In this document: in pieces, positions 1 through 2,802 of the stretch
Layout: each line of letters opens with the position of its first letter
Numbering within the stretch: position 1 is the first letter of the stretch
DNA from: Ilumatobacteraceae bacterium
GTDB taxonomy: Bacteria > Actinomycetota > Acidimicrobiia > Acidimicrobiales > Ilumatobacteraceae
Length of the DNA stretch: 54,840 nt
NCBI GenBank assembly: GCA_017859395.1
Contig: JAFMNE010000008.1
Span: 1 to 54,840, forward strand
Direction: 5' to 3'
Position numbers and translations under genes: made by a program
The notes under the pieces: model-generated
Seen by the model: the letters and a program-made list of their open reading frames with translations, nothing else
Told to the model about the DNA's origin: nothing
Databases searched by the model: none

Positions 1-54
1 AACCCCTATCGTCAGGATGGAAGCCTGAAGTTCTAGCCGTTGAACTACACCCGC
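1..54 (-). tRNA. tRNA-Gly (anticodon TCC), 3' end cut by window
   Basis: Read on the minus strand, the 5' acceptor arm GCGGGTG (48-54) is followed by a D arm and an anticodon stem TCAGG/CCTGA around loop CTTCCAT, giving anticodon TCC (19-21). The T arm and 3' acceptor lie outside the window. It reads glycine GGA codons. Confidence 0.9.
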
Positions 55-1615: not shown

Positions 1616-2332
1616 ATGACCTCCAACGACGGTGCCTCAGCCTCTATTGCCGAACGGGTGCGGAAGCTCTTGGCGATGGCTGAGCGGACCACTAACCCTG
1701 ATGAAGCGGACGCCTTCTCGGCGAAAGCGGCTGAGTTGATCGCTCGTCACCGGCTCACCCCCGAGGCGCTGCGTCCTCCAGATCCAGATCAGCTGGCCTT
1801 GCGGGAGGTCGTCATCGGACGCGGTGCCTATGTCCGCGCCCGACTTGCGTTGCTCGTTGCGGTGGCGACTCCACACGGCGGTTTCGTGACCTTCAGGTCA
1901 ACCGATGCGGGCACCGTAGCCACCGTGTGCGGGCATCGCAGCGATCTCGATGCCATCGCGGTGCTGTACACCTCGCTGCTCGCACAGATGTCCGCCCGCG
2001 CCGCTCAGCAGCACCGGGCAACTGGTGCGGCGACTCAGCGCTGGCGCCGATCATTCATGTTCGGTTTCGCGCACCAGATCGAAGAGATGCTGCGCCGTGC
2101 TCATGCCAATGCGGTCGCCGACGCCTCCAGCGATGATCTGCTGCCTGCGCTGCGGGCGCGTGACGCCGCTGTGCGGGAGTTTGCATCTCACGAGCTCGGC
2201 CCGATCGTGACCGCACGTCGCGCTGCTCCGGTGGGCGCCGATGCGGTGCGGAGCGGTCGCGCGGCGGCCAATGACGTCGATATTGGGCGGTCGCGCCTGG
2301 GTGGTCGACATGCGATCGGATCGGGCCGGTGA
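1616..2332 (+). CDS. DUF2786 domain protein
   Basis: Conserved protein of unknown function, about 238 residues. Residues 8-50 match the DUF2786 pattern: a helical segment (ERVRKLLAMAERTTNPDEA) followed by AFSAKAAELIARH, which resembles a short helix-turn-helix. The middle part resembles the usual companion region, with a hydrophobic core and the WRRSFMFGFA stretch. An in-frame GTG lies at 1598, but ATG 1616 fits the domain start better and is 7 bases after TATCCA. The stop overlaps the next start as GTGA, so the two genes are translationally coupled. DUF2786 proteins are frequent in actinobacteria and their phages; no biochemical function is established to my knowledge. Confidence 0.75.
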   Translation: MTSNDGASASIAERVRKLLAMAERTTNPDEADAFSAKAAELIARHRLTPEALRPPDPDQLALREVVIGRGAYVRARLALLVAVATPHGGFVTFRSTDAGTVATVCGHRSDLDAIAVLYTSLLAQMSARAAQQHRATGAATQRWRRSFMFGFAHQIEEMLRRAHANAVADASSDDLLPALRARDAAVREFASHELGPIVTARRAAPVGADAVRSGRAAANDVDIGRSRLGGRHAIGSGR

Positions 2333-2802
2333 GTCGTGATGATGCGCGCAGCGAGGTGTACGCCGCGGAACTGTCCGCGACGGCGGGGACCAGCCTCGAG
2401 GTGACTCGAACGCTCGATGAATTACGCGCCGCCGCCACACGGATAACCCACTCACCGTGGTGGCCAGGTGTCGACGTTGCGGTGGTCGCTGCCCGCGCCG
2501 ATGCGCACAGTTCACGTGCGCGGTATCGGGAGGGAAGGATCGAAGTTCGCTTCGCTGCCGGCCAGAAGGATATGGCGACCCTGATCCACGAAATGGCCCA
2601 CGCCCTGGCGGGCCTCGATGCTGCTCACGGGGCGCTGTTCCGTCGAGCTCACATCGATATTGCCTCAGCCGCGGTCGGCGCGCAGGCCGCCACATGGGTG
2701 GAACGCGCGTATCGGGCTGCTCGTCTCGACATCGCCGAGCGGTGCTGGCCACAACCCAGTGCAGTCGGGGGGCGTGACGAACACGGACGTTTCGTCGTGT
2801 GA
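2329..2802 (+). CDS. small HExxH metalloprotein (TIGR04338-like metallohydrolase)
   Basis: Putative zinc metallohydrolase of 157 residues. The motif LIHEMAHAL near residues 85-93 is a clear HExxH zinc site, and a further His (HGALFRRAH) follows about 10-18 residues later as the likely third ligand region. Length and motif position recall the actinobacterial family TIGR04338, found next to DUF2786 genes; this match is from memory and untested. The protein has no signal peptide or membrane segment, so it should be cytoplasmic. It starts with GTG inside the stop of the DUF2786 gene (GTGA overlap), which argues for joint function. The substrate is unknown. Confidence 0.7.
   Translation: MSRDDARSEVYAAELSATAGTSLEVTRTLDELRAAATRITHSPWWPGVDVAVVAARADAHSSRARYREGRIEVRFAAGQKDMATLIHEMAHALAGLDAAHGALFRRAHIDIASAAVGAQAATWVERAYRAARLDIAERCWPQPSAVGGRDEHGRFVV

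What the first reader, a model, noticed from the sequence alone, without database searches (positions are those of the whole stretch)
1616..2802. Coupled DUF2786 and HExxH protein of unknown function
The two genes overlap as GTGA and together look like a conserved two-component unit: a small putative DNA/RNA-binding domain protein and a cytoplasmic zinc metalloprotein with an intact HExxH. The pairing recalls ImmA/IrrE-type regulator-peptidase pairs in which a small HExxH protease cleaves a DNA-binding repressor, though no sequence similarity to those is claimed. Both families are found in actinobacteria and phages.
Basis: inference. Interest (0 to 1): 0.5.

Follow-up and report, generated by a model that had tools for sequence, protein, structure and literature searches.

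The report
Tiny Spartan-like protease with nucleic-acid-binding partner
Two overlapping genes, a basic protein that may bind nucleic acid and a very small zinc protease resembling the human DNA-repair protease Spartan, travel together across actinobacteria and in mycobacteria usually sit behind a DNA-damage-type promoter, so they may be an unstudied DNA-repair pair.

Summary
Window 1616-2332 encodes a DUF2786+DUF7168 protein. Window 2329-2802 encodes a 157-aa HExxH protein that starts inside the first gene's stop (GTGA). Both are under purifying selection.

The pair is real and deeply conserved. In 396 phylum genomes, 25 of 28 short-type DUF2786 genes have the HExxH gene just downstream, against 0 of 34 evaluable N-extended ones. 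In named genomes, 21 of 21 evaluable loci are paired. The HExxH and a third His are invariant.

The ImmA/IrrE analogy is not favoured. The protease model's best PDB match is the SPRTN (Spartan) SprT domain; Wss1 is also near, and IrrE ranks far lower. The partner is basic, has a weakly KH-like core and no HTH hit.

New here: 11 of 14 mycobacterial-family pairs carry a PafBC/RecA-NDp-like DNA-damage promoter sequence just upstream (0.02 expected). It was not found in the window's own class. A related branch without DUF2786 often lies beside Ku/LigD.

Best reading: a two-protein, Spartan-like protease for protein trapped on nucleic acid, with DUF2786 as targeting subunit. Function is inferred; no catalysis, binding or confident complex is shown.

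The parts
1616..2332 (+). Short-type DUF2786 + DUF7168 protein, 238 aa, basic (pI 10.8)
   Evidence: Pfam PF10979 E 2.4e-15 and PF23771 E 2.5e-8; alignment of 22 sequences; pI
2329..2802 (+). HExxH zinc-metalloprotease-like protein, 157 aa, SprT/Wss1-like predicted fold; GTG start overlaps the stop of gene 1
   Evidence: HExxH...H invariant in 26 of 26 aligned sequences, window included; AF2 pLDDT 91.8, pTM 0.86; top PDB match SPRTN 6mdw, prob 0.98
2329..2332 (+). GTGA stop-start overlap (likely translational coupling)
   Evidence: sequence; 13 of 21 relatives have a clear 4-nt overlap and 18 of 21 some overlap
2587..2601 (+). HExxH codons (residues 87-91, HEMAH)
2626..2628 (+). third putative zinc ligand H100 (AHG, SprT-type HG..F context)
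   Evidence: invariant column H100

Best explanation
A two-protein genome-maintenance protease. The small HExxH protein is a minimal SprT/Wss1-type zinc protease (fold and ligands predicted). The probably translationally coupled, basic DUF2786-DUF7168 protein binds it and brings it to DNA or a DNA-protein complex, so that it clips protein stuck on nucleic acid, as the DNA-binding regions of SPRTN or Wss1 do within one chain. In mycobacteria the pair is probably switched on by the PafBC DNA-damage activator. Shown here: conserved pairing, invariant ligands, predicted folds, promoter-like sites in mycobacterial relatives. Inferred: DNA binding, complex formation, proteolysis, DNA-damage role; for the window's own lineage the damage link is by homology only.
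For: Pairing: 25 of 28 short-type DUF2786 genes paired against 0 of 34 evaluable long-type; 21 of 21 evaluable named loci. Fold: protease model pLDDT 91.8; Foldseek rank 1 SPRTN 6mdw (prob 0.98, E 0.018), rank 3 6mdx; VIA Z 5.4 with 24% identity over 101 residues for 6mdw, Wss1 Z 5.5, abylysin Z 6.3. Partner: mean pI 10.1 in 22 sequences; DUF7168 part weakly resembles KH domains. Promoter: TGTCR-N11-TANNNT upstream of 11 of 14 Mycobacteriaceae pairs, 0.02 expected from genome density; it fits the published PafBC/RecA-NDp consensus. Solo branch: Ku and LigD polymerase within 6 kb in 12 of 22 loci fetched.
Against: No catalysis or binding data. SprT-like Pfam match is below cut-off (17.7 v 25.6 bits). 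VIA Z of 5-6 is middling and shared with unrelated zincins such as a cold aminopeptidase (5.9) and LTA4 hydrolase (5.7). KH likeness is weak (Foldseek E about 1), ferredoxin-type designs score the same Z, and the model lacks the KH GXXG helix pair. Fused-model pTM 0.60 gives no confident interface. The promoter site is absent upstream of the window and 20 named relatives, and the full motif is absent from 8 class genomes. The mycobacterial loci are related (9 of the 11 sites in one genus), only 5 of 14 match the three published M. tuberculosis variants exactly, and genome-wide the pattern is only 406 against 274 for its reversed control. LexA boxes are not enriched. The Ku link runs through a conserved block with SDR and thiolase genes.
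Confidence: 0.42

Rival explanations
1. Regulator-protease pair (works like ImmA/ImmR or IrrE/DdrO): the DUF2786 protein represses genes and the HExxH protein cleaves it on a signal.
For: Two overlapping genes, one basic protein and one HExxH protein; strict pairing of the short type.
Against: No HTH match in the DUF2786 protein; fold nearer SPRTN/Wss1 than IrrE; solo protease branch in 24 of 148 genomes with no DUF2786 beside it in the 20 loci checked; long-type DUF2786 without protease.
Confidence: 0.12
2. RNA-directed protease: the KH-like DUF7168 protein binds RNA or ribosomal particles and the protease acts on trapped ribonucleoproteins.
For: Many structural matches of residues 63-133 are KH RNA-binding domains; the pair sits near tig in 6 of 25 named loci.
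Against: No GXXG loop; weak Z; the damage-type promoter in mycobacteria points to DNA.
Confidence: 0.13
3. The protease works with DUF2786 in a process unrelated to nucleic acid (for example envelope or lipid metabolism), DUF2786 being a chaperone or inhibitor.
For: Solo branch is beside SDR (14 of 22) and thiolase (11 of 22) genes; in the one mycobacterial locus read widely the pair lies near a lipase-like gene (my reading, L135); KH likeness is weak.
Against: Damage-type promoter; basic partner; SPRTN/Wss1-like fold.
Confidence: 0.2
4. Toxin-antitoxin or phage-derived module.
For: Short overlapping genes; DUF2786 relatives are common in phages (327 records with a Gordonia phage query).
Against: Single copy in the genome beside what I read as core genes, purifying selection, no PADLOC match; window's protease not found in phage or plasmid records.
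Confidence: 0.05

Closest known systems
TIGR04338 family metallohydrolase (HEXXH_Rv0185)
   Same: Same gene pairing with DUF2786 (14 of 14 over-cut-off members in 396 genomes); HExxH...HG..F-type core
   Different: Window protein scores 18.4 bits against a cut-off of 90; different middle region
SPRTN / SprT domain (6mdw, 6mdx) and Wss1 (5xbn, 5xbv)
   Same: Predicted fold, HExxH plus downstream HG..F
   Different: Single chain with its own DNA-binding parts in the eukaryotic proteins (recalled); here a 157-aa core and a separate partner; below the SprT-like Pfam cut-off
Minigluzincins (abylysin, jannalysin, selecase; group name recalled)
   Same: Small single-domain zincin; VIA Z 6.3 for abylysin
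   Different: No nucleic-acid-binding partner known to me (recalled)
ImmA/IrrE regulator-peptidase systems
   Same: Small HExxH protein beside a putative nucleic-acid-binding protein
   Different: No HTH partner found; IrrE 3dti ranks 33rd, prob 0.07
phrog_421 / phage DUF2786 proteins
   Same: Homologous to gene 1 over its length (E 5.3e-28)
   Different: No annotated HExxH gene seen beside it in seven phage loci checked

Membership tests
DUF2786 (PF10979) | Pfam score over cut-off | tested here: met
   56.6 v 23.9 bits
DUF7168 (PF23771) | Pfam score over cut-off | tested here: met
   34.1 v 25.5 bits
TIGR04338 | NCBIfam score over cut-off | tested here: not met
   18.4 v 90 bits; 18 of 26 aligned proteins match at E<=0.01
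TIGR04338 | Adjacent DUF2786 gene (a feature found here, not a curated one) | tested here: met
   window, and 14 of 14 over-cut-off members in 396 genomes; about 1.1 kb between the genes in G419
SprT-like (PF10263) | Pfam score over cut-off | tested here: not met
   17.7 v 25.6 bits; 5 of 12 members of A1 match at E<=0.01
SprT-like (PF10263) | HExxH with downstream HG..F | tested here: met
   HEMAH...AHGALF; H87, E88, H91, H100 invariant in 26 of 26
SprT-like (PF10263) | SprT/SPRTN fold | tested here: inconclusive
   rank 1 in Foldseek with prob 0.98 but VIA Z only 5.4, tied with other zincins
SprT-like (PF10263) | C-terminal Cys4 zinc ribbon of bacterial SprT (recalled) | tested here: not met
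   one Cys in the 157-aa protein
DNA-protein-crosslink protease | DNA-dependent proteolysis | not testable with these tools
   needs biochemistry
ImmA/IrrE pair | HTH repressor partner | tested here: not met
   no HTH family among Pfam, NCBIfam or PHROGs matches of gene 1 at E<=10
ImmA/IrrE pair | IrrE-type peptidase | tested here: inconclusive
   no Pfam IrrE match at E<=10; 3dti at rank 33, prob 0.07
PafBC regulon | TGTCR-N11-TANNNT promoter upstream of the pair in Mycobacteriaceae | tested here: met
   11 of 14; 5 of 14 exact published M. tuberculosis variants
PafBC regulon | same site upstream of the window pair | tested here: not met
   0 of 21 upstream regions, window included; 0 of 8 class genomes hold the full motif
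PafBC regulon | PafBC-dependent induction | not testable with these tools
   needs expression data; supplements were not open

The most novel reading that the evidence does not exclude
A split bacterial Spartan: a minimal SprT-type zinc protease that, unlike SPRTN or Wss1, takes its nucleic-acid targeting from a separate, translationally coupled DUF2786-DUF7168 subunit, forms part of the PafBC DNA-damage response in mycobacteria, and has a sister branch next to bacterial NHEJ genes. It would be the missing dedicated DNA-protein-crosslink protease of Actinobacteria.
Probability: 0.33. Interest if true: 0.78.

Novelty: new variant of a known kind. Interest (0 to 1): 0.52.

Why it matters
How bacteria, and actinobacteria in particular, remove protein crosslinked to DNA with a dedicated protease is little worked out (recalled). 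If right, two families of unknown function, one of them named after a tuberculosis protein, become a testable DNA-repair pair, with laboratory Mycobacterium smegmatis as host. In the held library the terms DUF2786 (5 papers), DUF7168 (0), TIGR04338 (1), Rv0184 (0), Rv0185 (1, which is Rv0185A) and Rv0184 with Rv0185 (0) gave no paper on the pair that I saw. Of the five DUF2786 papers I read passages of one and saw the other four only in the listing.

Tried and rejected
Natural fusion of the two proteins: BFVD matches spanning much of the fused model suggested one, but Mycobacterium phage Hawkeye gp51 (362 aa) has no HExxH. The other long BFVD matches were not looked at. No annotated HExxH gene beside DUF2786 in six other phage loci, nor any HExxH frame over 70 codons in three plasmid loci.

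DUF2786 scan of IMG/VR: no relative confirmed. LexA-box search upstream of 35 pairs: no enrichment over 350 random windows, though L115 has a site with one mismatch, which no random window had. Other shared upstream dyads in the window's relatives: the one 6-of-20 dyad comes from coding sequence of the neighbouring hydrolase gene (inference). Sigma-70 and terminator scans: none found.

Ku/LigD linkage of the solo branch was first taken as strong evidence. It is weakened because an SDR gene is beside 14 of 22 and a thiolase near 11 of 22 of the same loci, so a conserved gene block explains it in part.

Profile comparison with PF10263-type proteins of the order: hhalign prob 92.8, but over 37 columns around the HExxH only, and those are YgjP-like (my label). 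Complex: the fused model gave pTM 0.60, so no interface is claimed. PADLOC: none. Weak profile hits in 12 other phylum genomes (of 32 of 392 with a hit) were not examined.

Full report
WHAT IS THERE. Window 1616-2332 (+) encodes a 238-aa protein with DUF2786 (E 2.4e-15) and DUF7168 (E 2.5e-8), both over the Pfam cut-off. Window 2329-2802 (+) encodes a 157-aa protein with HEMAH at residues 87-91. Its GTG start shares four bases with the first gene's stop. A tRNA-Pro (2803-2878, minus) follows at once, then tig, clpP and clpX (my reading of the ORFs). Against the nearest relative, L094, dN/dS is 0.066 and 0.135, and 47 of 58 and 39 of 57 changes are at third codon positions. One copy of the protease was found in the window's genome, which is 95% complete.

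THE PAIR IS CONSERVED. A draw of 396 phylum genomes gave 63 PF10979 matches in 59 genomes. Sorted by locus: 25 short-type genes have the HExxH gene just downstream on the same strand (in G419 with about 1.1 kb between); 3 short ones have none (one in G334, two in G307; L126 was not recognised by my DUF2786 profile); 35 genes carry a long N-terminal extension and none shows it, one of them (G460, L048) being cut at the contig end, so 0 of 34. Most long-type loci leave about 0.9 kb beyond the gene's end to look at. One of the 35 (G343) was called long by its reading frame and not by my extension profile, and 14 loci seeded that profile. All 14 genomes with an over-cut-off TIGR04338 protein have it within 2 kb of a DUF2786 gene. 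TIGR04338 rang in 33 of 396 at E<=0.01; the 19 below cut-off include 7 window-type pairs (G000, G002, G008, G031, G087, G095, G114), three unpaired genes that I looked at (G003, G009, G083), and weak hits that I did not follow. In the class draw (148 genomes) 21 have DUF2786: 12 short, all paired; 9 long, none paired.

A scan of named genomes returned 25 loci, titled Actinomycetota/Actinobacteria, Acidimicrobiia-type, Ilumatobacter or Desertimonas. Four start so near a contig end that no upstream gene is held; the other 21 have DUF2786 directly upstream (in L105 only its end is held). This scan started from close relatives of the window's protease. At the junction, 13 of 21 have a 4-nt overlap, 18 of 21 some overlap (L097 has no usual start codon in my reading), and 3 have gaps of 3, 49 and 80 nt. 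Neighbouring genes differ: an alpha/beta hydrolase gene recurs in 6 and tig in 6 of the 25 loci (gene names are mine). So the two genes travel as a unit.

THE PROTEASE. H87, E88, H91 and H100 are invariant in 26 of 26 aligned proteins, and in the 12-member set reaching other families. The AF2 model has pLDDT 91.8 and pTM 0.86. Foldseek against the PDB puts SPRTN first (6mdw, prob 0.98, E 0.018) and third (6mdx, 0.91), abylysin second, IrrE at rank 33 (prob 0.07). No match reaches E 0.001. VIA gives abylysin Z 6.3 (rmsd 4.1, 89 residues), Wss1 5.5 (3.3, 88) and SPRTN 5.4 (4.2, 101, 24% identity), but a cold aminopeptidase scores 5.9 and LTA4 hydrolase 5.7. So a small zincin is sure and the SprT/Wss1 group is the likeliest. 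By sequence, SprT-like (17.7 v 25.6 bits) and TIGR04338 (18.4 v 90) are both below cut-off. The protein is therefore filed as SprT-like in kind, not as a curated member.

THE PARTNER. Folded together with the protease by reading through the in-frame TGA of locus L115, the DUF2786 protein is well predicted (whole model pLDDT 86.1), but pTM is 0.60 with a disordered joint (residues 235-249), so the relative placement is not to be used. Residues 63-133 form a beta-alpha-beta-beta-alpha core. Of 50 VIA rows 8 name a KH domain (MEX-3C with RNA Z 5.2, rmsd 2.8, 70 residues; FMRP, Nova-2, hnRNP K, FUBP1 and others), and some 20 more are pre-ribosome chains that I take for KH proteins (recalled); ferredoxin-type designs score the same (Z 5.1). 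BICC1 KH has Foldseek prob 0.84, E near 1. The helix pair with GXXG that KH domains use to hold nucleic acid (recalled) is not in the model. The proteins are basic (window pI 10.8; mean 10.1, range 7.0-11.6, n = 22), the proteases neutral to acidic (mean 6.0, n = 26). No HTH family was matched.

PROMOTER. Upstream of the Mycobacteriaceae pairs, 11 of 14 genomes carry TGTCR-N11-TANNNT in the sense direction shortly before the DUF2786 start (about 30-130 nt, depending on the start chosen). The three without it are G194, G410 and G419. The loci scanned hold 13 matches in 135,528 strand positions, 12 of which are these sites (one genome is present twice). The density in five of the genomes (406 matches) predicts 0.019 of 14 loci; the reversed control pattern had 274 in the same genomes, so most genome-wide matches are chance. 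The published consensus is tTGTCRgtg-8 nt-TannnT (PMC5656591, passage seen); for M. tuberculosis TGTCGG, TGTCAG or TGTCAC-N10-TA-N3-T (PMC8151990, passages seen). Five of 14 match those three variants exactly. The genomes are related (nine of the sites are in one genus), so the 11 are not independent, and I noticed the pattern before I tested it (scan, then 105). PafBC's use of this kind of promoter and its role in DNA damage are from PMC6789036 and PMC8223512 (passages seen). In the window's own lineage the site was not found: 0 of 21 upstream regions (window plus 20 of 21 named pairs; L105 dropped because its upstream is cut off), and the full motif is absent from 8 of 8 class genomes, so control by PafBC in this form is unlikely there.

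SOLO BRANCH. 24 of 148 class genomes have a related protease (E 1.4e-50 or better to the solo profile, which was built from 6 of them); the 20 loci fetched have the same HExxH...HG..F and no DUF2786 within about 1.5 kb or the contig end. None of the 12 paired class genomes is among the 24. Ku occurs in 64 of 148 genomes. Of the 24, 15 have Ku, and in 12 it lies within 5.3 kb of the protease; in the other 3 it is on another contig. In those 12 the LigD polymerase gene is there too. But in the 22 solo loci that I fetched more widely, an SDR gene is beside the protease in 14 and a thiolase near it in 11, so this may be a conserved block and not a functional link.

LITERATURE. DUF2786 appears in 5 held papers; in PMC10433963 (passage) a DUF2786 protein, MSMEG_0222, is listed among ClpC1 interactors. 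TIGR04338 is in one, as a core gene of M. avium linear plasmids (PMC12803027, passages). Rv0185 is in one, as Rv0185A, a metallothionein (passage). PMC12363180 (passages) reports SprT-like proteins in mycobacteriophages resembling 6MDX; PMC7824862 (passages) SprT-like peptidases in jumbo phages. None of the passages I saw treats the pair. That Rv0184 is the DUF2786 neighbour of Rv0185 is recalled, not from a call.

MECHANISM AND VERDICT. Shown: a conserved, mostly overlapping two-gene unit; invariant putative zinc ligands; a small zincin fold nearest SPRTN/Wss1; a basic partner; a damage-type promoter sequence in mycobacterial relatives. Inferred: the partner targets the protease to nucleic acid; the substrate is protein trapped on DNA; induction by PafBC. 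I put 0.42 on the repair reading as a class, 0.33 on its full 'split Spartan' form. The ImmA/IrrE-like reading keeps 0.12.

Noticed in passing
window 2785-2799 (C-terminus of the protease); alignment A4: Most Ilumatobacteraceae relatives end in a conserved hydrophobic C-terminal tail (GPIAL or like; window GRFVV, low confidence in the model). It could be a degron or a self-binding peptide; clpP and clpX (my reading) lie close by in the window.
   Followed up: no
L166-L175, L128, L130: Solo relatives of the protease lie near Ku and LigD polymerase in 12 of 22 loci fetched, often with SDR, thiolase and a CDF-like gene in the same block.
   Followed up: partly
L014-L019, L038-L063: A long DUF2786 type with a roughly 200-aa N-terminal extension (WQP motif) has no protease beside it (0 of 34 evaluable in the phylum draw).
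   Followed up: partly
H30-H89 records (phages): DUF2786 relatives of a Gordonia phage protein occur in 327 phage records, 280 of them mycobacteriophages; most of the 60 listed are annotated only as hypothetical proteins.
   Followed up: partly
L182 4001-4396: An IMG/VR viral contig encodes a solo-type relative of the protease with the same N-terminal motif.
   Followed up: no
L115 upstream of the pair: A LexA-box-like site with one mismatch (TCGAAC-N4-GTTCGA, consensus recalled) lies upstream of this one pair.
   Followed up: no
window 1-54: Cut tRNA gene at the window's left end, minus strand (Rfam tRNA 36.6 bits).
   Followed up: no
L065-L073, L076, L077 upstream regions: In the mycobacterial loci the PafBC-like site varies at the base after TGTCR (T, C or G), a looser form than the published variants.
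   Followed up: partly
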